Shown here: positions 85-48,767 of the stretch, in pieces
How the letters are laid out: the number at the start of each line of letters is the position of its first letter
How positions within the stretch are numbered: position 1 is the stretch's first letter
Origin: Mayamaea pseudoterrestris
Taxonomy: Eukaryota; Bacillariophyta; Bacillariophyceae; Sellaphorales; Sellaphoraceae
Direction: 5' to 3'
Length of the DNA: 64,000 bases
NCBI GenBank assembly: GCA_027923505.1
Contig: BROI01000003.1
Location: 1,302,001-1,366,000, forward strand
Notes under the pieces: model-generated
What the model saw: only the letters and a program-made list of their open reading frames with translations
What the model was told of the DNA's origin: nothing
Database searches by the model: none
Position numbers and translations under genes: made by a program

Positions 85-1391
85 TCATCGATTCCGATCC
101 TTGGTGCTCCACTTGAAACCCAGGAGCTCCAACCGTTGCACTCGTTCCCACGTCATGCCCTTGGCCTTGGTGGGGCCATGATCCTGCAGCAGCTTTTTAC
201 GGGCTCGCTGATTCTGCATCCATTTGTTCAACGCCTTGTCGTTGCAACAATTAGGAATGCAGCCATGATCGGTGCGATACTGCATAAGCTTGTCATAGTT
301 GGCTTGCCACTGGTCATGTTTCACGTGCGGACGCTTGCCGACACCAACGATCCATTCAAAGCCAATGCTGTTGAGTGCATTGACTTGGTCGTCGCTCAAA
401 CCCTTTTCGCCATGCGTTCTATCGCGAAGTTGCTTATTGGTACGTTGCTTGCGAACCCAGGCGTGCAGCGGGCCGTCGTCGGCCTTGCTCGGACTAGCGT
501 GCCCGTGCTGCAGCTTGTAACGAATCAATTGCTGGAATCGAGCCTAATGCAGAGATACGTCAAAGTGTTACCAATCGAGTGTTACTTCATGCAATTCACA
601 AGCCTTGTTAAACGTATACCTCTTACCTTCCATCGTTCCTGCAAATTCTTGACATCGTTTGGATTGACGGGTTTCTCCGACGACGACGCAAATGCCAAGA
701 CGGCATCACCCACCAAGGTTGCCGTACTATTCGTCACCGCGAAGGGCTGTTGCCCCGCATGTGTCGCCGTCGTCTTGACGAGTTGCTGCCGGAGCGACTG
801 AATCTCTCGTTCACGCTGCGCGAGTTGTTTCTTCAGCAAATGATTCTCCTCCGCCGGTGTCATTGGTGTTGAAACAGCCTTTTTTCGTGGTTGCTTTGGT
901 GTGTTGCTCCGCTTCGTCTTGGTTGCAGCAGCGTTAAAGTTGTTGGAGTTTGGTTCCAGCGAGCTGGCGGCCACCAATGTGGCAAGCGGATTATTGACTA
1001 CACCGAAATTCTCATTTACAAACTCTTGACTAGTTCTCACCGCGGCGGCGAGTGGGTCGGGTGGAGGCAAGGAAGGGGAAGGAGATGTATTTTGCTGCTG
1101 CTGCTGCTGCTGCTGCGGCGTTATGAACGAAGCAGTCAATGAATCTGCATCTAGATTTGGCCGATCTTCCGCCTCTAAATTTTGTTTTTCATGATAAATT
1201 TGTTGAACAGCAAGAGGCGTCGCAAATGTATGTTCAAAATCCTGCAACTGAAGTGCGGCTGCTTCGATGGAAAAGTGATGTTGCTGCTGCTGTTCGCCGC
1301 CTCTTCCTGGGAACGGCGGCGGCATGAAGAAGAGCGAGTCATCTTTACTGGAATCTTGGTGGTGTTGCTGATCATTTGCGTATTCACTCAT
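85..1391 (-). CDS. Helicase-associated (HA) repeat protein, copy 1
   Basis: Two exons, 1391-627 and 543-85, joined across an 83-bp intron (544-626) with a GTAAGA donor and a TTAG acceptor. The splice restores the sequence RWK/ARFQQL, which matches RWRARFSQL of the paralogue at 7440-8741. The product is about 407 residues. The N-terminal half is low complexity with Gln runs coded by CAG/CTG repeats near 1090-1120. A coiled-coil-like segment (EENHLLKKQLAQREREI) follows. The C-terminal 160 residues hold two helicase-associated (PF03457-type) repeats, each with HGH or HGC, a W-x-x-x-QR core and an IGF/LGF-x-W end. HA repeats are thought to bind nucleic acid; no helicase motor is present. The start at 1391 was chosen because it gives a length close to the paralogue; an in-frame start at 1553 is possible. 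The exact role is unknown. Confidence 0.85.
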
Positions 1392-1662
1392 TGACGACGA
1401 AAGAATTAGTGGCGAAAGGTAGCAGCAGCAAGTATGTGGAACAGTGTCATGGTGAAGCTCTTTCGCAAGGAATTTGCAGACAGTGATGCATGATGTCACA
1501 CCACTTCTGAGTACGTCATCATCGGATGTTTGAAACGCAACGTTGTTAACCAACGCGCCAGCCGGTACTGCCCTCTATGTATTCAAATCTCACGCCAGCC
1601 AGCTTCGACATGCCGATGAACGAAGCAAACATGCACAAATCAAAATCAAAACGACAGCAGCC

Positions 1663-4600
1663 ATGACGATTATGAGACGGTTTTGTCTCATCGTCGCGCT
1701 GCTATCAGCAGCCGCATCTGCAGAGAAGAACTCGTTTTGGATTGGAGACAAGGTGAAGGACCATGAGGTGAGCAAGCAGAATGAGTGCAAGTGCAAAGCC
1801 GTTGTAGAAGAAGGACTAAATGTTTGAGTGAATTGTCATGATTTCGATTTGATTTTCCATCTTTGACGGGAGATGTAACTCATATCATTCAAGGTGAAGG
1901 ACTACCTTCGGCTCCTTTTGTTTTCTCATACATACTTTTTCTGTCGCATGCAGAACAATGTCGCTCATCGCCTCCTCGAGCGCCTCCAAGCTGATCCTCG
2001 CGTTGACAGTTCGGGCCACTACAAGCATTTGCATGCTCATCGAAACATGGCGGCAGTGCAGGAAATGGAGGCGCAGCAACCGGAGGATACCTCAGTGGCT
2101 ACGGGCGCGCCGCCGGAATCAATCTTTGACGAGTCAATGATTCCGGAAGACATTTCGACAACAACTACTGATAGTACTCCTGAAACTACGGCAGTTTCAG
2201 ACACTCCACCGGCTGATCCAGTGGCTGAAGAGTCGCCTGTACCAGATATTCTAGTGGCGCCTCCTCCAGTAGCTGCACCTGAAACTCCAGTGGCGGCCCC
2301 TGACACTACTGAGGCTGCACCTGAGACTCCAGTCGCAGCACCCAAACCTCCAATCGCGACACCAGTACCAGCGACGGATCCAGTCGTCGACGAGCCAGTC
2401 GAGGAGGAGAAGGATACGACGGAGCAAGTGACGTCCTTACCAAAAGCTACCAAAGCACCAGACACAGCCGACGAGGAGCAGGATGCATCGTCGACGACGA
2501 CCAACACTGAAAGCGAAAGCAGCAGTGAGGGTCACTCAATCTTCAAGGGCGACACAAGCAGCAGCACGACAACCACTACCAGTGGACCCATTACTACCAG
2601 TGCGGAATCAAGCGGCAGTGCTTCCGTTGCGGAAGGCGGAAAGTTTGTTCCAGAAACGACGCCATCGGCAGTCAAGAAGGTAGCCATTGCCAAAAAGGGT
2701 GGCTCCAAGAAGGTAATCTCGGTGACTGGAAGCAAAACAATCAAAGCTGCAAAAGCGATCAAGGGTAGCAAGGCACCAAAATCGACTATTGTTACTACTC
2801 CCACCACCACCACAACAACAACTACTTCTTCAGCGTCGCAAAAGACCATCAAGAAGGTTCGAGGAATTGATGAGCAGGCCACCAAGGTTACTTCTGACAA
2901 GCTCGTTGAGACAGCTGTGGAAGATTGCGACTGCGAGGACGACGTGAACAAGCCACCGCCGTCTTTCGTCGGGCAAGGATCCGTCACTCCAGTCGCTGCA
3001 CCTGCGGAAGACTGTGAAGAAACGACGGCTCCGTTTGGTGCACTAGGAACGTCAGCACCAACACCGTTGCCAGCAGCCACGACAACCGGAGCACCGACTG
3101 TCGTTGCTTCCGCTGTCCCTTCTTCGACACCATCCGTCACGCCAAGTGGAGCACCAAGTGCGGCACCGACGATTCTATTGTCGACGGGACGACCAACGAA
3201 AGCGCCTAAAACGTCACGTCCAACTCCATTGTCAACGGTGGCACCAACTGCTTCCCCTACAAACAGTCCAACGGCGGTTGAGACAGAAAGTCCAACAGCA
3301 GCACTCAAGACTGTCCGGCCCACCTCGTCCCCTACAGCGGCGCCTACTTCTTCCCCTACCAGCAGTCCAACTGCCGTGGAGACGGAAAGTCCTTCAACAA
3401 CCCCCGAAACGTCTCGACCAACACCTGCTCCTACTCCCAGGCCGACATCTCCGCGCACTGAAGGCCCAATTACTCTTTCCACTGGTTCACCTACTGGCAA
3501 ACCAGGCACATCATCTCCCACTGGCACGCCATCAACGTTTATTGGTACTGGAAGTCCGACTTCTGCCCCGACTATGCTTGACGAATCAGTGCCGACTGTC
3601 TCTCCCATTGGTACGATGATGAGGTCTGGTCGCCCAACCTATCTGCCGACGCAGGGCATTTACATCACCACAAAGCCTTCCACTGCACCAGTTGCCGCCC
3701 CAGTTGCCGCCCCAGTGTCACCTCCACCAGTGGAACAAGAAGTGACTGCGACACCCATACAACAGACGGTCACGCCAGCGCCCGTACCAGCGACGACTCA
3801 GCAGCCTGTATCACCTCCTGTCCAAGTTCCAGCACAGCCCGTTTCGGCGCCAGTCACTCAGCAGCCTGTATCATCTCCTGTCCAAGTCCCACCACAGCCC
3901 GTTTCAGCACCAGTCACTCAGCCTCCTGTGTCACCTCCTGTCCAAGTTCCAGCACAGCCCGTTTCAGCACCAGTCACTCAGCCATCGCCTGTCGCTTCTC
4001 CTGTTACGCCTCCATTTGGAGAGTCTGGCGGAGGCGACTGCTGCGACTGTGATCAGACGAAAACGCCAACTGCTCCGTCGACTCCTTGGCCGACACCATC
4101 CTACTTTAAGGAAATTAATTCGCCGTCGCCCGTGAAACAAAGCGTAACTCCATTGCCGACCAAACCACCGACACCCGCTCCAACATCCTTGCCAACCATT
4201 CCGTTTGTCCCACTCGGATCTCCTGAGCCGACAAAGGAGCCAACGAGCCCACCAACATTGGCACCTGTTCCATTGCCGACGCTTCGCCCTACGCCTTTGC
4301 CGTCACCGCGTCCTACGCCTGCTCCAACTGCGGCTATAGTAACTTCCCAGCCGGTACCACTTCCTACGCCTTTGCCAACTGCGGCTAAAGTTACTCCCCA
4401 GCCAGCACCGCTTCCTACGCCTTCGCCAATCGCGACTGTGGTTCCTCCCCAGCCGGCACCGCGTCCAACTCCTGCGCCAACTGCAGCTCTAGTTACTCCC
4501 CAGCCAGCACCGGTTCCTACGCCTTCCCCCATTGCGGCTGTGGTTACTCCCCCGCCAGCACCGCGTGTCACAGCTACGCCGACCGCGGCTATAATTGCTC

Positions 4601-5085
4601 CACCAACGGGCCTTCCACCCACGCCAAACTTTATTGAAACTGGCACGACGCCTCCCACAGACACGCCTGTTCCATGCGAGGACGACTTTACCGAAATGGG
4701 GTCCCAAATTCCAGTTCCCAAGGGATCAGGATCAACCATCAAGGTGACTGAAAGTGGAGGCAGCGACAAGGAAGCTGTGGTCAAGACGAGCAGTGGCGGT
4801 GGCGGCGCGTTCAAGGAATCTGGAGGCGGTGATTCCAAAGAGTCTGTCTTTAAAACAGTTTCCAGTGGCTCTGTCGCTACCGTTGTCAAGGAGTCATCGT
4901 CGGGAGGCGGCGGCGGCGGTGATTTCAAGGCAACTTCCAGTGGATCAGTGGCAAGCGTCGCTAAGGAAGCATCAAGCGGTGGTGGCGACGACGTTAAGGA
5001 GTCATCAGGCGGTGGAGACTTCAAGGAAGCATCCAGTGGATCCGTGGCAAGCGTCATGAAGGACGCAGACCGCAAGTGGCTCTAA
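1663..5085 (+). CDS. Secreted Pro/Thr/Ser-rich repetitive protein, silaffin-like candidate
   Basis: Exon 1 starts at 1663 and codes for a clear signal peptide (MRRFCLIVALLSAAASA). Exon 2 runs 1954-5085 after a CATGCAG acceptor. The donor is uncertain: 1768 (GAG/GTGAGC, strong, 186-bp intron) or 1822 (GTTTGA, weaker, but keeps an ECKCK motif like the later CDC and CCDCD motifs); both keep frame. The mature protein of about 1,050 residues has an RLL/RLQ stretch, an acidic Pro/Ala part, a Lys-rich block with regularly spaced lysines (2734-2781), long S-P-T and P-T-x-x-P repeats, three 20-residue QPVSPPVQVPAQ-type repeats, 18-20-residue PTAAxVTPQPAP repeats, and a C-terminal Gly/Ser/Lys tail with KESSGGG units. 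Such composition is known from diatom wall and mucilage proteins. A silica role is inference from the lysine spacing. No catalytic domain is seen. Confidence 0.75.
2734..2781 (+). other. Lysine ladder (six Lys at every third residue)
   Basis: The coded peptide reads KTIKAAKAIKGSKAPK: six lysines separated by exactly two residues each. Just upstream (about 2680-2715) are paired lysines, KK-VAIA-KK-GGS-KK. This spacing is that of the pentalysine clusters described as silica-targeting signals in diatom silaffins and cingulins. The match is to a spacing rule only; nothing here proves silica association. Confidence 0.7.
3799..3978 (+). repeat. Coding minisatellite, three 60-bp units
   Basis: Three tandem copies with an exact 60-base period code for 20-residue units of the type QQPVSPPVQVPAQPVSAPVT. 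They differ by a few substitutions only. A fourth partial unit follows before the CDC-rich linker near 4030. A second, looser repeat of 18-20 codons lies at about 4320-4610 in the same gene. Copy number is likely to vary between alleles. Confidence 0.85.
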
Positions 5086-7291: not shown

Positions 7292-7299
7292 TGACGTCA
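7292..7299. promoter_or_regulatory. TGACGTCA (CRE-like) palindrome
   Basis: A perfect eight-base CRE palindrome. Its last base is the A of the most upstream in-frame ATG of the following gene, which suggests that this ATG is promoter sequence and that translation starts at 7440. In diatoms TGACGT/ACGTCA elements are known as CO2/cAMP-responsive sites bound by bZIP factors; function here is inferred. Confidence 0.5.
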
Positions 7300-7439
7300 T
7301 GATATTAAACAGCTGGCGCGAGCGCCACGTAGACACTGGTACAAGTTTCTACGTGAGCAATCCGTCGCTCGATGCTCATCGTCGCCACACTCTCTCGAGC
7401 GATCGCCATGGCACGCACGAGACGCTACTGCATGGAACC

Positions 7440-8741
7440 ATGGACATGAACCAGAGTACTGCAACGACGCAGCAGCATCACATTGCTCCGCCCCATGGCG
7501 GCAATGATCCCGAGGAGGCGCTCTTGCCCGAGCTTGGATTGTCTCCAACTCGCTACGTTCCCGTCGAGATTGCCGCGGCCCAGCAGCATCAGCATCAGCA
7601 TCACCAATATCAGCATCACAATGGATACGAGAGTGTGCCGACGGAGGCAGTGCAGCAGTTGCAAGACCAGAATCATTCACACGTTTTAAACGACGCAAAC
7701 AATGTTCCGCCATTGGAGCAGCAGCAGGAAACGATGCATTATTTGCATCACCAGCCGCAGGACCCGTTGAACGCCTTGACGACGTTGGCCGTGGCCGCCG
7801 CTCCTCCTCGTCCGCAGCAAGAACAAGAGCAGCAAGCCTTTTCGTTGCTCGACATTATGAGTGGCCCGCATCCGACTGCTCTGCCGCCGCCAAATGGATA
7901 CTTGTTTGCGCCACCAGACGGTGGGTCTTTGCAGCAGCAGCAGCAGCAGCAGCCGCCAAAAATGTTTCAGCAGCTAGCGCCTCTTATCAACTTGGACGAT
8001 CCATTGTCACTCGCCAAGGCGCTGGAAGCCAAGGACAAGGAAATCAAGGCGCTCAAGCGCGCGCTCCACAAGGCGCAGCGCAAGCCGCAACACGTTCGCG
8101 AGTCGACGGCGAGCATGATTGGCCAAGCCGTCTTGAGCATTACCAACAAGGCCGAGCCGGAGGCGGATCAAGTGGATCCAAACACGATTAAAAACTTGCA
8201 GGAGCGCTGGCGAGCGCGGTTTTCGCAATTGGTGCGATACAAACTGAAACATGGTCATGCGAATGTTCCTGTAAGTGATGGTGTTGAAGGAAAGTGTTGT
8301 AACTTGTTGCATGTAACTCGACACCTCACACAAATCCATCGCGCACTTTATTTACAGAAATCATACCACGACGCACCCTTGCACGCCTGGGTGCGCAAGC
8401 AACGCATCAACAAGCAACTCCGCGACCGCACCAATGGCGTCAAGGGCTTGAGCGACGACCAAGTCAACGCGCTCAACAGCATTGGATTCGCGTGGGTGAT
8501 TGGACATCAACCGCGCGACGACTTGTGGCAGTCCAACTATGAGCGTCTCGTGCAAATGTACGCAGCGCATGGATACATTCCGACGCACTGCAACGACAAG
8601 AGCTTGACCAAGTGGATGCAGAATCAGCGGGCGCGCCGCAAGCTGCTGGACACTTTGGGGGAGGGCAAGGCAAGGGGTATGAGCTACGAGCGAGTGCAAA
8701 AGTTGGATGCGATTGGTTTCACGTGGGATGCGCGAAAGTAA
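7440..8741 (+). CDS. Helicase-associated (HA) repeat protein, copy 2
   Basis: Exons 7440-8270 and 8358-8741 give 404 residues. The 87-bp intron 8271-8357 has GTAAGT and TTTACAG ends and no in-frame stop, so the frame stays open through it. Removing it restores HGHANVP/KSYHDAPLHAW, matching HGHASPSKADDGPLHAW in copy 1 (85-1391). The N-terminal 200 residues are rich in Gln, His and Pro with runs of CAG. A charged coiled-coil-like part follows (ALEAKDKEIKALKRALHKAQ). Two HA repeats follow, ending in IGFAW and IGFTW. The start at 7440 gives nearly the same length as copy 1; 7299 is the alternative. The intron position differs from that of copy 1. A nucleic-acid binding role is family knowledge. 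Confidence 0.87.
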   Translation: MDMNQSTATTQQHHIAPPHGGNDPEEALLPELGLSPTRYVPVEIAAAQQHQHQHHQYQHHNGYESVPTEAVQQLQDQNHSHVLNDANNVPPLEQQQETMHYLHHQPQDPLNALTTLAVAAAPPRPQQEQEQQAFSLLDIMSGPHPTALPPPNGYLFAPPDGGSLQQQQQQQPPKMFQQLAPLINLDDPLSLAKALEAKDKEIKALKRALHKAQRKPQHVRESTASMIGQAVLSITNKAEPEADQVDPNTIKNLQERWRARFSQLVRYKLKHGHANVPVSDGVEGKCCNLLHVTRHLTQIHRALYLQKSYHDAPLHAWVRKQRINKQLRDRTNGVKGLSDDQVNALNSIGFAWVIGHQPRDDLWQSNYERLVQMYAAHGYIPTHCNDKSLTKWMQNQRARRKLLDTLGEGKARGMSYERVQKLDAIGFTWDARK

Positions 8742-16924: not shown

Positions 16925-18735
16925 TTATGCTAGAAGGAAAGCCATAACTCCACCTAGTGCTGCGCCGGCAAACCCACCAGACCGACGGAAGGATGCTGAT
17001 GTCACTCCTGCCGGAGAGTTTCCTGTCGGGGCACCGGCTGTCGAATCTGCACCGTTGGCAGTGTCTGTAGGTGAAGATCCAGTCGATGGAGTAGGAACCG
17101 GCGCTGGCGCTGAAATCGAAGCCGACGGTGCAGCAATAGGACTTCGCGTCGCAGCTGCACCACCATCGGATCCCAATCCACTAATGGTGAAGGTCAAGCC
17201 TGAGTCGTCCATGCTGTCGATGGTAATTGTGATACCAGACGGCACAATGTTGCCACCTTGGTAGCTATCCGTGTTTGGATATGTATTGCCGTCAGTGTTT
17301 GGTCCAAGCGAGTCACCAGGCACGAATATATCGCCAATGTCACCAATATTAATTCCTTGCTCCAACTCGTACAGTCCATCCTTTTGCGCAATGGCCACCC
17401 GATAATGGTTTCCATTCTGAGGCCATCCCGACTGGCCGGGATAACCGCGGTTGTTCTGGCCATCAGCTTGGTAGTCAATATGCCATATCACCAAGCCGCT
17501 GCCGTAGAAGTTTGAATCAAAACTCACTGGAACACGATACTCGAGAACGAGAAACTCATCCGCTGGCCCCAACACTAATTTGTAGTAGTCAGGTGCAGTC
17601 GTCGATGGGCTGGCGGTGTAGGTGCCGTCAGATGAAATGGTGATCGGATCGATCCATGTTGTCATGAGCTTGCTCCACGGTCCCATGGATCCAGGATACT
17701 CGTCTGGTTTTCCAAGCGGACCAAAAGGATTGGACATCTGTGTGGCAAACGAGATTGATCTTTTGAGTATACGCGAACTGTGTGTTTTGTTGCTTGTGAT
17801 GGTAAACTGTATAGGAACTCACAATGTCATACCCGCCCACCCCGCCAACGTTGTTCGTCGTCTTGTCGTACAAGTCGACAGGTTTAGTGGTGTTCCGAAA
17901 GGCGTTGTATGTGTGGATGTGTTCATGCGTTGCCTATAAAAAGTGTGAGAGCGCATTGCTTGAGTTTGCGTTCAATGACATTGCCACAATTGCAAGAATA
18001 CTAACGAGTTCAACGTACAATTCCCATTCCGCATGGATTGCCATTGCATGTCCCAGTTAGCCCTGATGTAATGGAAAAGCCACTTAAACCAAAGTTGCCA
18101 TCGGCACTCTCCCAGCCGCCGCTAACTCGTTCACCGTTGTAGCCCCCACTAAAGATTCGATTCACAAATGTGGCTCCCGTTTCGCAGTCATCTCCCGGAA
18201 ACTCTGCCGGATAGCCCGAGTGAAATATGAAGAGCGAGTCAATCGTACCATCCCTATCCGAGTCGAACTGGCCCCAAAAGTCGAGCGAGTCAGTCCCCGT
18301 GCCAGCGAGCGCATCCAAGGCGTCGAGCTTGGGACGAAACATTTCGTGAATCGCTGGTTCTGTGATTTGGCCGCTCTTTCCTTGCGCGTAGTACGCTTCG
18401 GTGTTCGCCGTCGTGAACCAGTCTTCGACTTGACAAGTGGACTGGTAGAGTCCATACGATTGTTGCTTGAGGTATGGAGCAATCTTGTTGTTGCAAAGGT
18501 CGTCGTAGTAAGTGACATTTGGCAACACGCGATTCGCATGATCTGTGAAGCGAATGAGCAAGACGAGGGCTCGAATGGACGTTCCAAGGGCAGGACTGAG
18601 GTCTCTTTGATTTTGCTCGAGAGCGGTATCATGACTGTGAGCGTGTCGAAGTGGTTGATTGATGCTTGGGTTGGCAGCTGCAAGAGAAATGGTGTAAGTC
18701 GCCAAACTCATCAGTGCTGTTGCGAAGAACTTCAT
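16925..18735 (-). CDS. Secreted M6-like metalloprotease, C-terminally anchored
   Basis: Exons 18735-18019, 17933-17823 and 17737-16925 (two 85-bp introns) give 546 residues. A signal peptide (MSLATYTISLAAA) is followed by a domain with RALVLLIRFTDH, YG-LYQSTCQVEDWF and the calcium-like DSDRDGTIDSLFIFHSG. The zinc motif HEHIH (residues 242-246) lies at the start of exon 2, after GMGIAT. DLYD (259-262), GGYDIMSNPFGPLGKPDEY and a late beta-sandwich region follow, as in immune-inhibitor-A/M6 proteases. In M6 members the DLYD motif normally follows HExxH after five residues; here twelve intervene. The C-terminus is Pro/Ser/Thr-rich and ends in a hydrophobic stretch (FAGAALGGVMAFLLA) that suits a GPI or membrane anchor. 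Substrate unknown. Confidence 0.8.
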
Positions 18736-37978: not shown

Positions 37979-40900
37979 CTAGCCATGTTCAAGAATTGTT
38001 TGCAAAGATGGGCGGAACAGACGTTGCATTAGTGATTGCTGACGCCGGACGACCCTCTCGACGGGTGTTTGTTGTGATCGAAGCTGACGCTCAGTGCGGA
38101 CCTGATAGAGCCAGGCTTCGATTTGTGTTGGTAGACGCTGTTGGATACGGGGTTTTCCAGGCTTCATGAGGTCGCGGAGACGAGCAATGTTGGAGGTGCC
38201 CAGTGCGAATTCTTCATCAACCTGCCGGCGCAGGTCGAGGACTCGGATGCCAGTTTCCCGTTGGTGGAGAGCGTCGTTGCGCTGTGACCACATATCCCAA
38301 GATATTTCAAATAGTTTGATGATAATTTGAGATAGCCAGCGCCTCCCATTGTGATACGGTTTAGCATTGGAGCGACGGTAGTAGTGTTCCTGAGCTGCTG
38401 CCCATCCAATGGCAAAGCGCCCCTCAAAGGCTGCGTGCCACCCTAGGTGATTCTGTGCTGTGATCAAAGCTTGGATTGGTGCAGTTGTAGGAACTGGTGG
38501 AGCAGAGCTAGAACGCCATGCTTTGAGGCCCTCCACAATTGCAATGCGAATAGGGCCAAGTGTGCCAAGGTGCATGAGCTTGCTGTCCAATTCGTCCATG
38601 CGCTCAGTCCAGAGGGTGTCAGCTCCTGGACAGATATACAAATGGTCCACCGTTTCTATGACCTGGACTGGTGAAGGGAGTTGCAGGCAGGATGGGCAAG
38701 TGTCTTCCTGGGAATGGTTCCGTAATTTGGTGCGGTGGCGGACTGCCACAAACTTGGAGATCATTTTGGTCTGGTGTTGTTGGCGCCCCAGTGGCAGACT
38801 TTTCATAGCTTTGAAAGAAGCTTGCCAATCCACAGCTGCATCCGTGGAGTCACCAAATTTGCCCTTGCTGCGCCAGTAATTCAGGAGGGGTGGCCCATTC
38901 ACTTGCTCACGTATTGCAGACTGCACTTCCTTGCACAGTTTGATGCCATTGATGCAAATAGGAATTATTTCCTTATAGAGGAACTGAGGCATTGGATCCG
39001 TGGAGTGATCCGCAAACTGAACGCGGTGAAACTTGGCGGCCTCATCCATGGAGTCATTCAGAGTGGCCCAGCGATCCAGGGGACCCACAAGTTGAGCGCC
39101 TTCCCAACCGCCTCGTTCGCGCTGGTGACCAAGTACATGCCGTGTTTTCCATTGAATGGGGGTGTCACGCATCAGGCGCTTACAGGCAGAAATGATATCA
39201 AAATGTGACTGGCTTAATGGTGTCTGTGATTGAACCTTGCTAGCTTGTTTGAGGGCTGAGAGGCCATCGCATGCAAGCTCAAGGGACCCTTCTGTCACAT
39301 TATAATGTCGGCATAGCAGGTGCACAAGGACAATAGTTTGGTACAAGCCAATCAGTTCACTCCGGTAGGCACTTTGGTCCGCAGGCTGGCCAGGAGCTAG
39401 GCAGCTGGCAAAGATAGCATTTGTGGCGTTGGCACCTTGGATGGTAGTGGCTGCAGCTCCAGTTTGCAACGTTGGCTCGTAGGATCCATCACTTACGGCA
39501 ACAGCCGATCCATTTTGGAGTGCCGTGACGATTGCAGCACCTTCATCTGGTGGCAGAGAAACATGGTCAAGAATCCAGCGAGATGGCTCAGGCAGGGAAA
39601 CACGCATGGATGCCAGAACAGACAGTGATGGAGTAGAAGGAGCAGCCATGGAAGCACCCCAACTGTTGAACCGGACCTCCACAGGAGTAACCATTTGTAC
39701 TGATGCTCTGGCTAAGTCTGGTGGCCGCGGCACTGCCCACAATAGCTTTTGGAATACCCTGACGCGTCGACGACAACCCGTGCCACTGTAACCATATTGA
39801 AACCAGCCAGTGGGAGCTTTCTCCATGAGAATATCCAGCCTTGGGCTAAAGTAAAACCTTGTAGTAGGCTCCATGTCATCCCATGCCCCCAGACTATGAC
39901 GTAACTGCCGGTTGCGAGTACACCAGTGATGCTGCAGTGCTGTCCTCCAGAGTGCCCAGCAGCGATCTGACAAAGGACCTTGTGTTGGCCAGGAGTAGGG
40001 AGTATCGCGTGACTTGTCAATTTGTCCATTCCATGCTGCCTCCGTGATATAGGCGCCATCTGCGTGCACCATGTCGGAAAGGTAAAGCAATTGAAGAAAG
40101 ATGCGACAGCGGTTCAGGATACCCAAGGTAGAGGGTGACCAGTCAGCATTGTTGCGAAACACTTCCATAATGAGCGAGTCTCCATTTCTCCGTGGCTTGA
40201 AGACGGGCAAATCATCCAGGAGTTGGATAGAATGGTCATGGCAGCACTCGCCTGTAAATTGAATCCAACTTTTAGTTGTTGTATGGACTCGAGACATATC
40301 CGCGTCAAACAAAGGACCGTTAACACCAAGTTCCAGCTTCAACTGCTCAGAGCTAACACGGAGTAGTTGCGATGTGTTGCGTGATGGATGCTCAGAAGCA
40401 AATGCCAGTGCCTCAATATGGGTGTACAATTGGGTGGTATACATATCCGGAAAGCCCAGGCCTTGAAACTTGAGAGGACCAGTCCGGACTGCATTGGGTG
40501 TGTCGCTACCAATACCAGACAGTTGCAAAGCTGCTGTCATTGCTGGTCCTTGGATACGCTGGCACTGCTTGCTTGTGAGGCACGTGGCAACCAGGGGATA
40601 TGAGAAAGACTTGTCAATTGTGGTGCGATATGCAATGGTGGCCAGGTGACGGGGCAAATGACTCGCTCTCAACTTGTTTGCCCATGCCACAGACTTCTCA
40701 TAAAGAACTTGCGCCTGCCTGGACTCACTTCCATCCGGAGCCAGATAGATACCCAGTGTTCGCTCCGCATGGTTTGTTGGATAGCGCTGTATTGGCTGAG
40801 TAACGCCATGCATGTCCCTGACTTGGAGCTGTGCTGGGCATTCACCTTCTGGCTTGAGAGACCAAGAGCCATCCGCATGCCAGTTATATGCCATGAGATA

Positions 40901-43102
40901 CCAGAAAGTTTTCTCAGGAGCTATAGCGCCACCAGTAGCCCGGAGTCCTCCTTCCCAATGGTCGAGAGACCGCTGCATTTCTGCTGCAACATGTGCCGGG
41001 TCTTGCAGGTGTGCCGCGCAAATTCCTAGATCGGTATCGTCAACAAAGGAGTAGCCAACAAAGCTGACAGTTGTGCCAGTTAAAGCCCCTTGGTATGCCA
41101 TTGCGAGTCCCTCTGCACGGAGCATATTTAGTACAGGAGTAGAGACCAACGCCCAGATTTGAGGACCTGCACCATTGCCTTGACCAATAGTTGAGACCGG
41201 AACTCCATATAAGTGCTGATCCTGGCTCCCACCAAAATATGCTTTGGAGTCACCGTAAATGGTCCGAATATTGTGCTCCAGTCCCTGGATAGTGGAGAAC
41301 ATGCATATCACTGCTGGTTTTGGAACTCCAACACGCTGTAAACTCAATGCCGCCACGGCGTGAACAATGCGGTCATAGCAGGCTCGAGCATCATTGGAAC
41401 AAAGAGCCATTGGCCGGCGGAGTTGGCGAGACATATCAAATGAGAGGCGTTTCTCAAGGCCAATGAAATTAGCACGATGACCTCGGCGTGATCCACCTTG
41501 CTCTTTAGCCAGCAAGCCATCAGCTTCTGCAGTGAGCATCATTGTCTTGCCTAGGTACTTGAAGCAGTGATTGGCTACTGCATCAAACAGACAGATAGCA
41601 CGGAGCTTGTCCACTTGGAAGTTGCCAGCCTTTTTCTCAATCATGACATCAATAGCCTTACACCAGGATGGAGGCGGGCGGCCAGTAAGCATTGGCAGGT
41701 ACTCTAGCTGGCGATGAAATTCAGCAATGTCTGGATCCTGCACATTTGCCATCATGTGGCCAAAGTGTCGCCCCGGATATGCACCCGTTTGCTCCTTCTG
41801 AATTCTCCAGCCATATTGGAAAGTTGACAAATCCGGAACTGGATTGCAGAACCGATCACGGAGTGGTGCTGGGCGTTCTAGTTGGCGTGCCAGTTTGATT
41901 GCATACTCAGAGACGCCCTCAAAATCTGAATCATCCAACTGGCCTGCTAACATGCGGTCACAGAATGGAGACACACCAAGGGGGCCCACTTTTTGATACA
42001 ATGGTGCAGTCAGGAAGTCTGTATTCGATGCTTGACGGAACCTAGCGTTGCACTCCTTCATGATGGCAGCCTCCATATCTTCCTTGCCAGTCCAAGTAAC
42101 TAGAACCCCTTCCGAGTTTGTTGATTGTACCATTGACACCGCCCCACTGTGGCTTTGCTTCAAGGCAGACCAAATAATACGAGCGTTATCACGCATTTCC
42201 TCTCTCACCATGATTTGGCGGATGATAGCAGTTGCCTCCATACCCTTTGCAGCCGCCAGACTTTCAACCAGCTTCTCATTATGCGTACGGCGGGACTGCT
42301 GTGCTAATTGCTGCTTGAAATCTTTAATCTCCTGGTTCACCCGGAGCAGTGTGCGTTTAAGTTTTGCACGAGGCCATTTGATAACTTCAGTCTTCCTGGA
42401 GCGCATGGCTTGGCGCCAGATGGTTGCCAATCTGATCTTGTGGCCCCGTCGCCGGCGTAGCACCAGGTACAGAAGCTGTTGGTAGCGTTGCAACTCCAAG
42501 AATGCTGGTGACCAAGGGACTGCCCCAAGGAAGAGCTTGCGACATGTACGCTCGGCCTCCAGCATTGCCATGGTGCATTGAGTATCCAACCAAACGTACT
42601 TGGAATGCTCCCACTCCTGAAAGCAGCTGCCAGTTTGACGCGGATGGTATCGTTGCTTTGCCTTGGACCATAACTCTGCCATAGCAGGTATGCTAGATGC
42701 TGCCAACAAAGACGCCTTGTAGGAAGCCAAGTAAGCAGCCACTACCCGTGGATCTTGCAGCTTGAGACGGCGCATGGCTGGGCGCAGGATTGGTGGAACG
42801 GAGTGACCCAGAGCTACATGCATTGGAACATCCATAAATAGCCCCGTGTGATCTGCAATCCAGCCAGTGTACCCACATTTGAGGCCTTGGAGTGACGGCG
42901 ACACAAACAAGCCATCAATTTTTGTGCTACCGCGAGACATGGTCGGAGGTCCTGGTCCGTGTTGTTGGAGGATAGTTTCCAGGAGCCCCAATTCCTCCAT
43001 CTTGCCCCGGAAGACACTGTTGTCCTTAGCCAAATCTTCATTAGCATCAATGCCAATTGTTGCTCTGGAGCTGGCGGATGACTGCCTGCAGGTCACTGTC
43101 AA
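37979..43102 (-). CDS. LINE ORF: endonuclease C-terminus, reverse transcriptase, RNase H
   Basis: An uninterrupted 1,707-codon frame. At its start the endonuclease motifs IGIDANED, KIDGLFVSP and IADHTGLF appear (D-N, D and D-H catalytic residues). The RT core has SNDARACYDRIVHAVAAL, GQGNGAGPQIW and YSFVDDTDLG, the last being the catalytic F-x-DD box near 41040. The RNase H starts at about 39500 with AVSDGSYEP and continues AYRSELIGLYQ and ELACDGLSAL (D, E, D). A zinc finger CPSC with H-x-x-x-x-C lies near 38640. These are the enzymes for target-primed reverse transcription. Confidence 0.88.
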   Translation of the reverse strand: MTVTCRQSSASSRATIGIDANEDLAKDNSVFRGKMEELGLLETILQQHGPGPPTMSRGSTKIDGLFVSPSLQGLKCGYTGWIADHTGLFMDVPMHVALGHSVPPILRPAMRRLKLQDPRVVAAYLASYKASLLAASSIPAMAELWSKAKQRYHPRQTGSCFQEWEHSKYVWLDTQCTMAMLEAERTCRKLFLGAVPWSPAFLELQRYQQLLYLVLRRRRGHKIRLATIWRQAMRSRKTEVIKWPRAKLKRTLLRVNQEIKDFKQQLAQQSRRTHNEKLVESLAAAKGMEATAIIRQIMVREEMRDNARIIWSALKQSHSGAVSMVQSTNSEGVLVTWTGKEDMEAAIMKECNARFRQASNTDFLTAPLYQKVGPLGVSPFCDRMLAGQLDDSDFEGVSEYAIKLARQLERPAPLRDRFCNPVPDLSTFQYGWRIQKEQTGAYPGRHFGHMMANVQDPDIAEFHRQLEYLPMLTGRPPPSWCKAIDVMIEKKAGNFQVDKLRAICLFDAVANHCFKYLGKTMMLTAEADGLLAKEQGGSRRGHRANFIGLEKRLSFDMSRQLRRPMALCSNDARACYDRIVHAVAALSLQRVGVPKPAVICMFSTIQGLEHNIRTIYGDSKAYFGGSQDQHLYGVPVSTIGQGNGAGPQIWALVSTPVLNMLRAEGLAMAYQGALTGTTVSFVGYSFVDDTDLGICAAHLQDPAHVAAEMQRSLDHWEGGLRATGGAIAPEKTFWYLMAYNWHADGSWSLKPEGECPAQLQVRDMHGVTQPIQRYPTNHAERTLGIYLAPDGSESRQAQVLYEKSVAWANKLRASHLPRHLATIAYRTTIDKSFSYPLVATCLTSKQCQRIQGPAMTAALQLSGIGSDTPNAVRTGPLKFQGLGFPDMYTTQLYTHIEALAFASEHPSRNTSQLLRVSSEQLKLELGVNGPLFDADMSRVHTTTKSWIQFTGECCHDHSIQLLDDLPVFKPRRNGDSLIMEVFRNNADWSPSTLGILNRCRIFLQLLYLSDMVHADGAYITEAAWNGQIDKSRDTPYSWPTQGPLSDRCWALWRTALQHHWCTRNRQLRHSLGAWDDMEPTTRFYFSPRLDILMEKAPTGWFQYGYSGTGCRRRVRVFQKLLWAVPRPPDLARASVQMVTPVEVRFNSWGASMAAPSTPSLSVLASMRVSLPEPSRWILDHVSLPPDEGAAIVTALQNGSAVAVSDGSYEPTLQTGAAATTIQGANATNAIFASCLAPGQPADQSAYRSELIGLYQTIVLVHLLCRHYNVTEGSLELACDGLSALKQASKVQSQTPLSQSHFDIISACKRLMRDTPIQWKTRHVLGHQRERGGWEGAQLVGPLDRWATLNDSMDEAAKFHRVQFADHSTDPMPQFLYKEIIPICINGIKLCKEVQSAIREQVNGPPLLNYWRSKGKFGDSTDAAVDWQASFKAMKSLPLGRQQHQTKMISKFVAVRHRTKLRNHSQEDTCPSCLQLPSPVQVIETVDHLYICPGADTLWTERMDELDSKLMHLGTLGPIRIAIVEGLKAWRSSSAPPVPTTAPIQALITAQNHLGWHAAFEGRFAIGWAAAQEHYYRRSNAKPYHNGRRWLSQIIIKLFEISWDMWSQRNDALHQRETGIRVLDLRRQVDEEFALGTSNIARLRDLMKPGKPRIQQRLPTQIEAWLYQVRTERQLRSQQTPVERVVRRQQSLMQRLFRPSLQTILEHG

Positions 43103-43763
43103 ACCGTGCTATAGGATCCACCTCTTGGCCTTTGCTTGCAAAATGGGCGTATTGCTGACTCCAAACTGACTCGGCACCGCTCTTGTTAACCACTGGGCGA
43201 TAAGCCACTAATGCCACCAGAACCGCTCCATGCCTTCCTCGAAACCCATGGCCGCTCCATCTGCCCAAAGAGTCGCGGATTGTCAGCTGAAAGTCCACTC
43301 GGGTTGCCATCTTGTTGACGCTCCATATAGATGTTCCGCCGTACAACACTGCAGACTTGTGACCTGGATATCCGTCAAAGCAGGCAGACGAGATTCGACA
43401 TGCTTCAAACCAGCCCTTTGACCTGTGCTCCAACCGCTGATGCGATGCCACATGCCGCCAATTCACATTCACCTCGGACAGACCCAACACATCCACACGC
43501 AGTTCATTAACTTTGGATCTTATTAAGCAGTCTTTACAACTACCGCAAGGTCGCCAAACCTGACATACTGGAACCGCCGACAACCCACCAATATTAACAA
43601 ACAATAACCGAACGTGGTCACTTGCTGGAGCCACTAGTGCATGTCCAAATACTCCTCTTTTCTCATTGGCCGTCAAAGAGGAGGGACTTACAGGAGCATT
43701 CCGGGAAGGTCGTCCAGCTCTTCCCGTGCTTCGGCGCTTAGTTATGCCAACGCTGTCCACCAT
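43047..43763 (-). CDS. LINE 5' frame: N-terminal part of AP endonuclease
   Basis: 238 codons starting at 43763. After a basic N-terminus it shows the APE opening VRLLFVNIGGLSAV, the catalytic Glu in DVLGLSEVNVNW and VLVALVAYRPV. The C-terminal endonuclease motifs are in the other frame, so the domain is split at a frame change within the overlap 43047-43102. This could be a one-base indel or a site of programmed shifting. The overlap and the motif order make a separate protein unlikely. Confidence 0.75.
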   Translation of the reverse strand: MVDSVGITKRRSTGRAGRPSRNAPVSPSSLTANEKRGVFGHALVAPASDHVRLLFVNIGGLSAVPVCQVWRPCGSCKDCLIRSKVNELRVDVLGLSEVNVNWRHVASHQRLEHRSKGWFEACRISSACFDGYPGHKSAVLYGGTSIWSVNKMATRVDFQLTIRDSLGRWSGHGFRGRHGAVLVALVAYRPVVNKSGAESVWSQQYAHFASKGQEVDPIARFDSDLQAVIRQLQSNNWH

Positions 43764-43799
43764 CGTAGATTGCTGGCTAATTAGTTTATTTGGCTGAGT

Positions 43800-44560
43800 C
43801 TTGACTTCCGTGCATGTGTACTTGCTTGCTTGTTAAGTCGCTCACTCGCCTGCTTGCTAATTAAATGGCTTGCTGGAGCAGTCAGTCGGTCGTCCACTCG
43901 CTTGCGTGCTTAGTCAATCACTCGCTTGCCTGCTTGCTAATTAAATGGCTTGCTGGAGCAGTCGGCCGGTCGTCCACTCGCCTGCTTGCTTAGTAAATCA
44001 CTCGCTTGCCTGCTTGCTAATTAAATGGCTTGCTGGAGCAGTCGGTCGGTCGTCCACTCGCCTGCTTGCTTAGTCAATCACTCGCGTGCTTGTTAAATCG
44101 CTCGCTTGCCTGCTTGCTAATTAAATGGCTTGCTGGAGCAGTCAGTCGGTCGTCCAGTCGGTCGGTTGTCCACTCGCCCGCTTGCTTTTTAAAACACTCG
44201 CTTGCCTGCTTGCTAATTAAATGGCGTGCTGGAGCCATCAGTCGGTCGTCCACTCGCCTGCTTGCTTATTAAATCGCCTGCTTGCTTGTTAATTTGCTCG
44301 CTTGCCTGCTTGCTAATTAAATGGCTTGCTGGAGCAGTCGGTCGGTCGTCCAGTCGGTCGGTTGTCCACTCGCCCGCTTGCTTTTTAAAACACTCGCTTG
44401 CCTGCTTGCTAATTAAATGGCGTGCTGGAGCCGTCGGTCGGTCGTCCACTCGCCTGCTTGCTTATTAAATCGCCTGCTTGCTTGTTAATTTGCTCGCTTG
44501 CCTGCTTGCTAATTAAATGGCTTGCTGGAGCAGTCGGTCGGTCGTCCACGCGCCTGCTTG
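43800..44560. repeat. Minisatellite with 196-bp higher-order unit
   Basis: Units of about 80-100 bp built on GCTAATTAAATGGCTTGCTG, GAGCAGTCGGTCGGTCGTCC and ACTCGCCTGCTTGCTTA occur about eight times. From 44121 a longer unit of exactly 196 bp, made of two different sub-units, is present twice (44121-44316, 44317-44512) with very few differences. Both strands read open over parts of it because of the composition; no gene is claimed. It lies directly upstream of the LINE 5' end. Confidence 0.9.
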
Positions 44561-44655
44561 CTTGTTAATTCGCTTGATTGCCTCGGTTGCTCTGTTCCTC
44601 TGGCTTGCCTCCTTGCTTGCTCGGTTACTCGCGCGCTTTGCTAGCTTGCCTCCTT

Positions 44656-44718
44656 GCTTGCTTGTTTGTTTGTTTGTTTGTTTGTTTGTTTATTGTTGTT
44701 GTTGCTGTTGTTGTTGTT
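44656..44718. repeat. (GTTT)n and (GTT)n microsatellite
   Basis: About eight GTTT units are followed by a run of GTT with one GCT, the two joined by TTTATT. A simple low-complexity tract at the end of the minisatellite. Confidence 0.9.
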
Positions 44719-45025
44719 CGAACGTGGTTGCTTGCGCTAGTTGTATGTGTTGCTGCAACGGCGGGCAAGAGGTGCGGACGAGCTGACTGGATTCTGGTAC
44801 AAAATCTGTGTAGAGGGCTACAGGTGGTCTGGGCGTCGTACGTTTCCGTCGTGCAAAACTTTGAGCTGCTGGTTCTCTGCGGGAACTGAATGGTTTACTG
44901 TCTTTCTTCAATCAAAATGCTTGTTAAGTAGTAGGTAGTTGGTATATAATCATGGGAATGGGAGAAATTACGGTGTTACGGGGTTACGGTGTTGACGAGA
45001 CAAATAACAGAGAAGATGAGCAACT
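44719..45025. other. Non-coding between microsatellite and Copia pol
   Basis: 307 bp, no supported open frame. It would be the 3' flank or 3' non-coding end of the minus-strand Copia element; no matching LTR was recognised in it. Confidence 0.3.
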
Positions 45026-46936
45026 TTACCATCCCATAAGGAGACGGCGGAGGTGCTCGAATGTGACTTGGGGCAGCGCCTTTGTAAAGATATCCGCTCG
45101 TTGCTCCTTGGTGTCAATCTTAACGACTTTGATCGTGCCCTGCTTTACGTGGTGCTTAAAGTGGTGATACTTAGTAGCGTAATGGCGAGAGCGAGGCGTA
45201 AGATGAGGGGCATTGGCAAGCGCAAGGCAGCCTGCGTTATCTTCGTAAACGGTGCAGTAGGAGCGCGCGTTAACTTGGATGCGTTGCTTCATTTTGTTTC
45301 CCATTTCCTTGACGATTGCTTGGATAGGAATGACTTGGCGAAGGCTTGAAGAGAGGGCAACGTACTCGGATTCCATTGTAGATAGAGCGATTTCGGTTTG
45401 TAGCTTGCTTTGCCAAAAGACGGGGCAGCCACCGAGCATGATGAGGTATCCGGTACGGGACTGAGCGCACACTGGATCTTGACCGTCTTCCTTTCCATAT
45501 AAACCAGCAAAGTCGGCATCAACGTAACAGTCAACCGTGAGGTTACCTTCGGGCGTCATGATGAGTCCTTGTTCGCGAGTCTTGATGAGATAGCGGACGA
45601 TGCGTTTAACGGCGTCAAAGTGTGGCTTTTTAGGACAGTGATTGAATCGAGCGCATTGATTGACTGCAAAGGCAATGTCAGGGCGTGAGTTACCAGCGAG
45701 ATAGAGAAGCTTGCCGATTAGCGAGTTGTAGCTCCAGCTCTCTTGATGATCAGGTAAATCGGCGTTCTTGCCGAGCGTGTCGTTGGCGGGCGTGAAGACT
45801 CCGTTAGCAGCCTCCATTCCAGTAGCTTGAATGATACTGTCGATCAAACCCGTTTGAGTGAGCGTGAAAGACTTGCCAGAGCGCTTTATATCAATGCCAA
45901 GATATTGACTGAGATCGCCTTCTTCGGTGAGCGTGAACTTTGAGCGAAGGTCGTCGATGATGGTCTGCAGCTCCTTGTCGGTACGGGCGACGCAGATGCA
46001 ATCGTCAACGTAACAGGCGATGATTTGTCCATTGCGGTAGAAGAGACAGGGATCGAAGAAGCTTTGAGTGAAACCGAGCTCGACGAGTCGGTCGCGTAAG
46101 TGTTCGTAGAAGAGCTTTGGGGCGATCTTCGTTCCGTAGCACGACTTGAGCAACTTTAAACAGTAATCGCTTGATTGATGACCGTCTTTGTGTTGAAAGC
46201 CGCGTGGGAATTGAATGTAGATTGGATCCTTTAGTTCTGCTTGAACGAAAGCGTTGGTGAAATCGATGCACTGGGTTTTGTAGCCGAACGTCAAGGCGAA
46301 TACCATGAGGACACGAACGGTGCTCCATTGAACGACTGGTGCAAACGTTTCAAATACGTCCTTCTGTAGGTCTCCTCGAACGCAGAAGCGAGCTTTGTGT
46401 TTCTTAAGCTCACCGCTGGGCGTTCGCTTGCGGCGAAAGGTCCATGTGCCGGGGATGATTTGCTTTCCTTGAGGAACCTCGGTCCTTGGGATGACGACCC
46501 ACGTGCCATGATCTTCGAGCGACTTGATCTCTATTCCTGCGGCTTTCCTGAACTCTTCAGAGTCATCAGCGCGCATCGCTTCATCGTAGCGGAGTGTGTC
46601 GGGATCGTTCGTCGAGGCGAGTAGCACTTGCGTTAAACCGATTGAGTAAGGGTATTCCGCGTGCGCATGCTCTGCTAACAGCATATTGGTTTCAATCATT
46701 TCGTCGCGAGCATGTCGAAGACGCTGAGCTCGAGTAATGACTGGCTCTGTAGGACGATCGCGTAAATGTGCAGAGCGCCGTAAAGGAGGATCACTTGCTT
46801 GTTGTTGTTGTTGTGCGAGCGTGGGAGCTGTCGTCGGGATCGTGGACTCGTTTGATGCGTTTGGTGGACTGGGATTGACTGTGACATCGGCTGCATACAC
46901 GCGGTGGTGCGGACGAGCGCAAAGGATTGCCATCAA
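45026..46936 (-). mobile_element. Copia reverse transcriptase and RNase H region
   Basis: Contains the RVT_2-type start (WVVIPRTEVPQGKQIIPGTW), the core QCIDFTNAFVQAEL, the catalytic IIACYVDDCICV and the RNase H part with DCYVDADFAGLYG, TESEYVALS-like MESEYVALSSSLR, and the conserved C-terminal HHFKHHVKQGTIKVV and QRADIFTKAL. Part of the fossil at 45026-51684. Confidence 0.9.
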
Positions 46937-48767
46937 TGTGATCTAAATGCTCCCTCTGCTCCCTCTGAAGCGTTGGTTCTGTGGCTTCTGTAGGCGAATG
47001 AATTTCAGGAGTCCTTGTCTCCCTCTGATTCGGAGGCGGAGCGCTTGTGGCGGGCGGAGAATCAGTGGAAGGAACTGGAGCAACCGCTGGCGGAGCGGCA
47101 GGAGCAGGTAAAACTGGAGCGGTAGAAGGAGTCTGTGCTGCATGTATAGCATCTTGGCGAGCAGCTGAGGCATCAAAGTTGTCCTCCCACTCAGGATTGA
47201 GAGCAGGAAGGGGATCATCGTCATCGAACGGATACATGTACTTGCTTGTCGCAAAGAGACTCGTCCATCTGTCGTCCGTAAAATTTGGAGGCGAATCAGG
47301 AAGAGCGTCAACTGTAGTAAACCAATCGTCATGCGTAACGTGATACTGAGGACTGATGGTTAATGTATTCAAGTTGAGGACAAGAGGAACTGTAGCCGAG
47401 TGCTTGCTGGAGAAGCCGACAAAGATCCCGCGGCGTGAGCGCACTTTCCAACGAGGAATGGACTTGCCGTCTTGCATGCGAGGATCAAGAACGTAGGCGG
47501 GCGATCCAAAAACGTGGAGATGATGGAACTTGTGGCTTGCCCAGATGGTACCAGTGTAGATATCAATGGGAGCTTGGCCAGTGGCGACGTTTGGCATTCG
47601 ATTGAAGATGTAAACTGCGTAGTCGACAGCCATCGGCCAGAGCGACATATCATCAACGTCAGTCCAATGCATATTAGCGTGGATAAGCATCGTCCTTGCC
47701 ATGTTCATAATGGTTTGAATGTTTCGTTCTGCAATGCCGTTTTGATGATGAGCGCCGACGCCTGCAAAGACAGTCGTCTGCTTGAATTTGGAAAGATGCT
47801 CAGTGTACTCGTGACTGGTGAAACACGCAGCGTTGTCAGACAAGTAGCTTTCAATTGAAACGCCGCAGTCTCTTGCAAACTTTTCAAAGTTCCATTTGGA
47901 GCGAAGGGTTTCATGAGTGTTCATAACAACTTGATGGTCGACGAAGACGTATCCACTTGCGTGGTCGACAAAGAGCGCGCCACCGCTGAACATTGAGTCG
48001 GTCGACGTTTTGCCGCGAGACGTATAGAGGCGTCCCTTTTGACTGCAGATGTAATGATCAACGGAGACTTGTTGTCCTGGTCGAAGCTTTCCTTGCTTGA
48101 GCGATCCATCGGCTCGAGGCGTTGGTTGACGACTCGTTCCGGGCGCGGGTCGGCGTTTCGCCTTGCCAAACTCGCAAGCAGCGCACCGCGGGATCTCACA
48201 GGAGGCTGCTGCTTTATGGAGCTTGCGCATCTCATCGCTTGTAGCGAGGCGACCAGAGCGTAGAAGGTTTTGAATGCTGCGGAAGCTGGCGTGGCCGCAC
48301 TTGAAATGCCATTGAAGAAGAAGCTTTTGCGCGGGCGACAAGTTGGCGTTTCGAGCGTCTGTTACACATGCATTAAACTCAGCATGAAGGGTTTCAGGAC
48401 TATCTTGAGTTGCAATGGCTGTAGAAGTCGGTAGGTTGGTGACTGGATCGAGCGAGCCGTGAAGAAGGGACGGGCGTCCTTGTTTGTGTAGATCAAAGTA
48501 CCAGAATCCTTCTCCATTAATAGCAAACGTTAAATTCGCCTCGCGATCGTGTAGCTTGTGATATCGAGTGTACTGTTGGGGACACAGTAACTTGCGCGGA
48601 CTGTCGGGTATGTAGAGAGCTTGACAACGGACTCGTAGAGGCTTGCCATCGTTGCCATCAAGGGTCCAGTCAATTATGCCATGGCCGACTACTTGCAATC
48701 CAGATGCGAGGCCTTTAGCAATGATCTTCTTTGTGCTCTTGCGGTAAGTACCAGAGGCGAAAGTCAT
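46791..48767 (-). mobile_element. Copia integrase region
   Basis: Shows a GAG-pre-integrase zinc finger (LLLQWHFKCGHASF with CAACEFGKAKRR-like C-x-x-C), then the integrase core with DHYICS, FVDHASGYVFVDHQ and GVGAHHQNGIAERNIQ, and the usual downstream VFGSPAYVLDPRMQ. These are the established Copia integrase landmarks. Part of the fossil at 45026-51684. Confidence 0.85.

What the first reader, a model, noticed from the sequence alone, without database searches (positions are those of the whole stretch)
2734..2781. Silaffin-like lysine ladder in a secreted Pro/Thr-rich protein
Six lysines are spaced by exactly two residues in a protein that has a signal peptide, RLL/RLQ sites and long P/T/S repeats. 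This is the spacing reported for pentalysine silica-targeting clusters of diatoms. The protein's repeat layout is unlike the silaffins, cingulins and frustulins I know, so it may be an undescribed biosilica or wall-matrix protein.
Basis: partly seen in the sequence, partly recalled or inferred. Interest (0 to 1): 0.75.

Follow-up and report, generated by a model that had tools for sequence, protein, structure and literature searches.

The report
Candidate silaffin-like secreted diatom protein
This diatom gene appears to encode a secreted, repeat-rich protein with a cluster of evenly spaced lysines like those that steer other proteins into diatom glass shells, making it a reasonable new candidate of an already described kind rather than a new kind of thing.

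Summary
Bases 2734-2781 encode KTIKAAKAIKGSKAPK: six lysines exactly three residues apart, in a gene of two inferred exons (1663-1767, 1954-5085; 1078 aa). The protein has a signal-peptide-like start and one R-x-L motif (RLL; RLQ is not R-x-L). The ladder is rare: 0 of 20,000 shuffles of the mature chain, 105 of 50,000 of its lysine-rich block, and the only one among 637 open frames (264 kb sampled from this genome). The genome carries silicon transporters, so it is almost certainly a diatom's.

'Silaffin-like' is partly supported. [quoted passage not shown] The claimed novelty is weaker: Pro/Thr repeats, KXXK, RXL and pentalysine clusters are already described among T. pseudonana silaffin-like proteins, and Pro/Thr stalks are common in this genome. 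Against strict silaffin membership are seven cysteines in the mature chain and Ala/Ile-rich rather than Ser/Gly spacers. The N-terminal half, K block and C-terminus have no convincing relative in this genome. Location and modification are untested.

Verdict: new member of a known kind, moderate interest.

The parts
1663..1767 (+). Exon 1 (35 aa) with signal peptide, residues 1-20 (1663-1722), likely cut ASA|E
   Evidence: hydropathy peak FCLIVALLSAA; cleavage site by the -3,-1 rule (inspection)
1768..1953 (+). Intron, GTGAGC...GCATGCAG, 186 nt, phase 0; in-frame TGA (1825-1827) if retained
   Evidence: inferred, no RNA evidence; an alternative donor at 1753 is also in frame
1954..5085 (+). Exon 2, residues 36-1078 and stop
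1969..1977 (+). RLL (residues 41-43), the only R-x-L motif; candidate propeptide cleavage 23 residues after the signal peptide
   Evidence: 1,957 of 20,000 shuffles also give one
2149..2634 (+). Acidic P/T/E/A-rich stretch, residues 101-262, net charge -26
2635..2901 (+). Basic K-rich block, residues 263-351, net charge +15, 20% K
2734..2781 (+). Lysine ladder KTIKAAKAIKGSKAPK, residues 296-311 (pentalysine-type cluster)
2902..3048 (+). Acidic cysteine node 1 (EDCDCEDD ... AEDCEETTAPF), residues 352-400
3049..3684 (+). P/T/S stalk 1, residues 401-612, with one KAPK (3199-3210)
3685..4014 (+). P/V/Q repeats (60-bp unit, about 3 copies), residues 613-722
   Evidence: pS 0.171 against pN 0.055 between 3 copies
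4015..4068 (+). Cysteine node 2 (GDCCDCDQ), residues 723-740
4069..4668 (+). P/T stalk 2, residues 741-940, with PFVPLGSPEPT (4201-4233), shared with a 1,255-aa frame on contig C16
4669..5082 (+). C-terminal Ser/Gly/Lys repeats (SSGSVAxVxKExSSGGG type), residues 941-1078, 20.3% S and 10.1% K, with cysteine at 943
   Evidence: next best match in the genome E 2.03

Best explanation
A secreted silaffin-like protein of a diatom. The chain enters the ER by its signal peptide (inferred from sequence). A short propeptide may be removed at RLL (inferred). The basic block with the lysine ladder is then the likely address and silica-contact part: lysines in KxxK units may receive methyl or polyamine groups and bind silica or phosphate, so the protein goes to the silica deposition vesicle or wall (inferred from T. 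pseudonana pentalysine work). The S/K-rich C-terminus may act as a second silaffin-like domain once phosphorylated (inferred). The long P/T stalks, probably hydroxylated or glycosylated, and the acidic cysteine nodes would space and cross-link it in the organic matrix (inferred). If the ladder is extended as a polyproline-II-like strand (three residues per turn), all six lysines lie on one face (geometry recalled, not computed).
For: Silicon transporters in the same genome: 10 matches, 6 of them at E 8.5e-137 or better; in the control only 1 of 14 genomes rang, below the cut-off. Signal-peptide-like start and no later segment as hydrophobic: top 19-residue mean 1.56 at residue 1, at most 0.84 after residue 25. 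Five-lysine clusters of 13 residues against the published 12-14. The regular ladder is rare here: 1 of 637 open frames. [quoted passage not shown] rule quoted in PMC3820600). PT repeats are described in silaffin-like proteins. A single R-x-L lies 23 residues after the signal peptide, compared with 30 residues ending in RRL in Silicanin-1. K-A-x-K makes up 3 of the 5 ladder tetrapeptides; PMC3820600 reports a 'K-A/S/Q-K tetrapeptide' rule for 30 of 33 tpSil3 lysines.
Against: The mature chain has 7 cysteines, while silaffins, cingulins and silacidins are stated to have one or none. Only 1 of 8 KxxK units has Ser/Gly in both spacers (KGSK), so the PMC5501833 screen (repeated K[SG][SG]K) is not met. 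The composition rule is not very selective here: 10 of 637 open frames, this one included, meet it before any signal-peptide filter. The RXL could be chance. No expression, proteome or localisation data and no orthologue were available. The N-terminal half, the K block and the C-terminus have no relative in this genome at a convincing E-value.
Confidence: 0.55

Rival explanations
1. It is a mucin-like extracellular matrix or adhesive protein. The P/T stalks are the working part (glycosylated spacers), and the lysine block binds acidic polysaccharide or other wall polymers rather than directing the protein into silica.
For: P/T stalks are widespread in this genome: 90 matches (self included) at E 0.01 or better for stalk 1 plus node 1, including open frames of 2,342, 2,513, 5,440 and 10,579 aa. 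PFVPLGSPEPT is shared with a 1,255-aa frame on C16 and RPTPLPSPRPTP with a neighbouring frame there. Just upstream of each lies a frame with a signal-peptide-like start (that they form one gene through an intron is inferred), and both long frames carry a cysteine domain of about 183 aa. Cysteine nodes fit a cross-linked matrix.
Against: The C16 frames lack a KxxKxxKxxKxxK ladder in the 7.2 kb read, which does not cover the whole second gene, so the ladder looks special to this protein. The S/K-rich C-terminus is silaffin-like in composition.
Confidence: 0.3
2. The gene is secreted but the equal spacing is a by-product of a K/A-rich disordered block; the step of three has no function.
For: Given block 276-336, six lysines at some equal step of 1-7 arise in 1,087 of 50,000 shuffles, and a reader scanning 64 kb had many chances. 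There is no conservation test because no orthologue was found.
Against: The exact step of three is rarer (171 of 50,000 for the same block) and fits a motif with a tested role in another diatom.
Confidence: 0.12
3. It is a plastid, periplastidic or cytosolic/nuclear lysine-rich protein, wrongly read as secreted.
For: K/A-rich blocks resemble histone H1 tails (recalled). Exon 1 and the intron are inferred without RNA. Periplastidic proteins also start with a signal peptide and lack the aromatic residue at +1 (PMC12136025 passages), so that compartment is not excluded by sequence.
Against: Strong h-region and ASA|E site. Glu at +1, where the high-confidence plastid class needs F, Y, W or L. No Pfam domain. 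A long P/T stalk chain would be odd in those compartments (inference).
Confidence: 0.03

Closest known systems
Silaffin-like proteins (SFLPs) and KXXK proteins of Thalassiosira pseudonana, PT-repeat subset including TPSIL1 (PMC5501833, PMC3820600; passages)
   Same: Signal peptide, S/K-rich zones of at least 100 residues, RXL motif, pentalysine-type cluster, PT repeats
   Different: Spacers A/I/T/P-rich instead of S/G; seven cysteines; 1,078 aa, about half of it P/T/V/Q stalk (residues 401-940)
Pentalysine clusters of silaffins Sil1/Sil3 (Poulsen 2013, not held; described in PMC9650480 and PMC5501833, passages)
   Same: Five non-adjacent lysines in 13 residues
   Different: Exactly regular six-lysine step; letters of the published clusters were not available for alignment
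Lysine-enriched regions of cingulins CinW2/CinY2, Tp5357 and Tp12162 (PMC9650480, Table 1 seen in a passage)
   Same: Runs of K(X)2K in secreted proteins
   Different: Those spacers are mostly S/G; no W/Y-rich domains here
P/T-stalk frames of the same genome on contig C16 (11.6-18.7 kb read)
   Same: PT stalks, PFVPLGSPEPT or RPTPLPSPRPTP, KAPK units, short EDC...APF and CxCxC motifs (by eye), signal-peptide-like frame upstream
   Different: They lack the ladder in the part read; both long frames carry a cysteine domain of about 183 aa that this protein lacks

Membership tests
Silaffin-like protein (composition definition) | ER signal peptide | tested here: inconclusive
   Clear by inspection and hydropathy; no SignalP
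[quoted passage not shown]
   100-residue windows starting at 188-225, 229-237 and 940-979; rule from PMC3820600
KXXK screen of PMC5501833 | Repeated KXXK with X = S or G, 1-6 residues apart | tested here: not met
   Only KGSK at 305
Pentalysine cluster | Five non-consecutive lysines in 12-14 residues | tested here: met
   296-308 and 299-311, 13 residues each; 6 of 637 sampled open frames, this one included, meet it
Pentalysine cluster | Directs a fusion protein to silica | not testable with these tools
   Needs transformation
Silaffin (strict) | Silica-embedded, polyamine- or methyl-modified lysines, phosphoserines | not testable with these tools
   Biochemistry
Silaffin (strict) | One or no cysteine (PMC5525289) | tested here: not met
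   7 cysteines in the mature chain
Silaffin (strict) | RXL processing motif after the signal peptide | tested here: met
   RLL 41-43; could be chance; cleavage itself untested
Cingulin | KXXK regions alternating with W/Y-rich regions | tested here: not met
   3 W and 4 Y in 1,078 aa
Silicanin/SiMat7-like | C-terminal transmembrane helix | tested here: not met
   No 19-residue hydropathy mean above 0.84 after residue 25
Pleuralin | PSCD domains (recalled) | tested here: inconclusive
   No PDB sequence match: 0 at E 0.01 for residues 503-951, only glycerol dehydrogenases at E 0.2-0.3 for residues 21-400; it was not checked that a PSCD entry is in the library
Frustulin | Acidic cysteine-rich (ACR) domains (recalled) | not tested
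   No reference sequence was to hand; 7 scattered cysteines make it unlikely (inference)

The most novel reading that the evidence does not exclude
The protein is a silica-to-matrix linker: a regular KxxK ladder, presented as a one-sided charged strand, anchors in silica, while P/T stalks with redox-active or metal-binding acidic cysteine nodes tie the silica into a wider family of P/T-stalk extracellular proteins. This would be a cysteine-bearing, cross-linking subclass of silaffin-like proteins.
Probability: 0.15. Interest if true: 0.6.

Novelty: new member of a known kind. Interest (0 to 1): 0.36.

Why it matters
If it is in the wall, it adds a testable lysine cluster whose spacers hold almost no serine, which would show whether lysine spacing alone, without serine phosphates between the lysines, is enough for silica targeting. 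The shared P/T-stalk and cysteine-node parts would also link silica proteins to the larger stock of P/T-stalk proteins in this genome.

Tried and rejected
Paralogue search with the N-terminal half, C-terminus and K block against the own genome: only self at a convincing E-value; next best 0.379, 2.03 and 0.435. Viral contigs with the N-terminal half: 10 stretches matched a pattern, none encoded a relative. Pfam gave 0 families for the full protein up to E 1. PDB sequence search: glycerol dehydrogenases at E 0.2-0.3 for residues 21-400, none at E 0.01 for residues 503-951. Species not identified: two paper searches by assembly size and contig count found nothing; a guess at one genus gave 2 papers that I did not open. 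Plastid targeting thought unlikely (Glu at +1); periplastidic targeting is not excluded by that. A residue-shuffle comparison with the C16 frames exaggerates similarity of the stalks because it breaks PT periodicity; there residues 21-400 also scored 145 against one 297-aa C16 frame (highest of 60 shuffles 126), while residues 961-1078 stayed within the shuffles for all five frames. Markov controls were used for the stalks: 1, 3 and 56 of 300 simulations at orders 1, 2 and 3 reached the observed 11-residue match, so shared descent of that piece is plausible but not proven. The part of the giant frame held in L021 shares no 8-residue word with this protein.

Papers: PMC5501833, PMC9650480, PMC4557024, PMC3820600, PMC5525289, PMC4220933, PMC5101815, PMC7168173 and PMC12136025 were seen as passages only. 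Poulsen 2013 and a 2022 comparative silica proteome (recalled) are not held and were not seen. PMC11151724 was seen only in a listing. That this protein is undescribed was not shown by any search: without a species name no literature search for the protein itself was made.

Full report
What is there. The window lies in a 30.6-Mb genome of 41 contigs that holds silicon transporters (10 matches, 6 of them at E 8.5e-137 or better; 1 of 14 control genomes rang, below the cut-off), so a diatom is by far the likeliest source. The species was not identified. The finding falls in a gene of two exons, 1663-1767 and 1954-5085 (+), with a 186-nt GT-AG intron whose retention would stop the frame at 1825-1827. 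The protein has 1,078 residues and no Pfam family. The intron and start are inferred; no RNA data were available. Between three copies of the 60-bp repeat, synonymous differences exceed amino-acid changes (pS 0.171, pN 0.055). The same holds for the 99-bp pair (0.648 against 0.172) and, weakly, for the five 51-bp copies (0.278 against 0.184) and the 102-bp pair (0.234 against 0.207). This supports a translated gene.

The ladder. Residues 296-311 are KTIKAAKAIKGSKAPK, exactly as reported. Shuffling the mature chain 20,000 times gave no six-step ladder; shuffling the local K-rich blocks gave 105 and 171 of 50,000. Allowing any equal step of 1-7 raises the second figure to 1,087 of 50,000. In a 264-kb sample, only this one of 637 six-frame open frames of at least 100 aa has KxxKxxKxxKxxK, while 6 of 637, this one included, have a looser pentalysine-type cluster. 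The sample includes the window itself and otherwise covers contigs C1, C3 and C5 only. Loose clusters are therefore a small but real background, and the regular ladder is rarer.

Architecture. Signal peptide 1-20; a short stretch ending in RLL (41-43); an acidic stretch (101-262, net -26); the basic block (263-351, net +15); a cysteine node (C360, C362, C389); P/T/S stalk 1; P/V/Q repeats; a second node (C731, C732, C734); P/T stalk 2; a last cysteine (C943); and a Ser/Gly/Lys-rich C-terminus. The mature pI is 4.85 and no later segment is hydrophobic enough to look like a membrane span. RLL is placed much as the RRL of Silicanin-1, which ends a 30-residue stretch after the signal peptide (PMC5525289 passages), but shuffles give an R-x-L there in about one case in ten.

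Comparison with known silica proteins. [quoted passage not shown] This protein meets the composition part twice, within residues 188-336 and 940-1078; 10 of 637 open frames in the sample, itself included, do so before any signal-peptide filter. PMC5501833 (passages) reports PT repeats in 14 SFLPs and KXXK proteins including TPSIL1, RXL in all ten new KXXK proteins, and pentalysine clusters in eight of those ten. Two features differ: the spacers are A/I/T/P-rich (only KGSK is Ser/Gly) and there are seven cysteines.

Relatives. Nothing in the same genome resembles the N-terminal half, K block or C-terminus at a convincing E-value. The stalks are another matter: stalk 1 with node 1 has 90 matches at E 0.01 or better, itself included. 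The 36-aa module around PFVPLGSPEPT matches a 1,255-aa frame on contig C16 three times (E 7.7e-6, 7.9e-4, 0.043), and RPTPLPSPRPTP recurs in a neighbouring frame. Order-1 to order-3 Markov controls reached the 11-residue match in 1, 3 and 56 of 300 simulations, so the link is plausible, not proven. By eye these frames also share KAPK units and short cysteine motifs with this protein, and each lies downstream of a frame with a signal-peptide-like start (one gene each by inference). Both long C16 frames carry a cysteine domain of about 183 aa; it gave 14 matches at E 0.1 or better, self included, five of them within one 2,664-aa frame on C11, with no Pfam match.

Mechanism. The most likely reading is a secreted silaffin-like protein whose basic block targets or binds silica and whose stalks and cysteine nodes space and cross-link it. 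Shown here: the sequence features. Inferred: secretion, RXL cleavage, lysine and serine modification, silica binding. The main rival is a mucin-like matrix protein whose lysines bind polysaccharide. The two overlap and only localisation can separate them.

Verdict. It is a candidate new member of a known kind, worth a place in a list of constructs to localise.

Noticed in passing
L021 1-10000 (-), own genome C1:100001-110000: Part of a single 10,579-aa open frame made of P/T/S repeats (GGTEAYSGTPAPTS, then SPTASPSGGPT types) with an embedded globular-looking domain of about 170 aa that has no Pfam match: it looks like a giant mucin-like protein.
   Followed up: partly
L041, own genome C16:11600-18800 (-), and C11:300683-307537: Two neighbouring P/T-stalk frames, each downstream of a frame with a signal-peptide-like start, both with a cysteine domain of about 183 aa (CYYSWIYCG...) without Pfam match and without PDB match better than E 0.47; five matches to that domain lie in one 2,664-aa frame on C11.
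   Followed up: partly
Own genome C1:2970661-2974680 (-): Three silicon-transporter matches lie in what is given as one 1,445-aa open frame, apparently a triple fused transporter.
   Followed up: no
window 51850-53385 (+): Class-III aminotransferase. From memory it resembles phospholyases acting on phosphohydroxylysine or phosphoethanolamine, which would be of interest because silaffins carry modified hydroxylysine; not tested.
   Followed up: no
window 85-1553 (-) and 7299-8741 (+): Two genes that look alike by eye flank the locus; the + strand one has helicase-associated (HA) domains, the - strand one was not scanned. The - strand one seems to start about 270 bp upstream of this gene in divergent orientation, so the two may share a promoter region.
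   Followed up: no
window 18013-18735 (-): Secreted-looking M6-type metallopeptidase piece (Peptidase_M6), with a P/T-rich tail in a nearby frame, 16928-17737 (by eye).
   Followed up: no
window 37979-49378 (-) and 57765-63092 (+): Long frames that look like a non-LTR element and copia-type retroelements (by eye).
   Followed up: no
L003 (C3:1158543-1161857) and L004 (C16:269118-272432): Two 3.3-kb stretches on different contigs identical at 2,891 of 3,315 positions without realignment: a recent duplication or mobile element.
   Followed up: no
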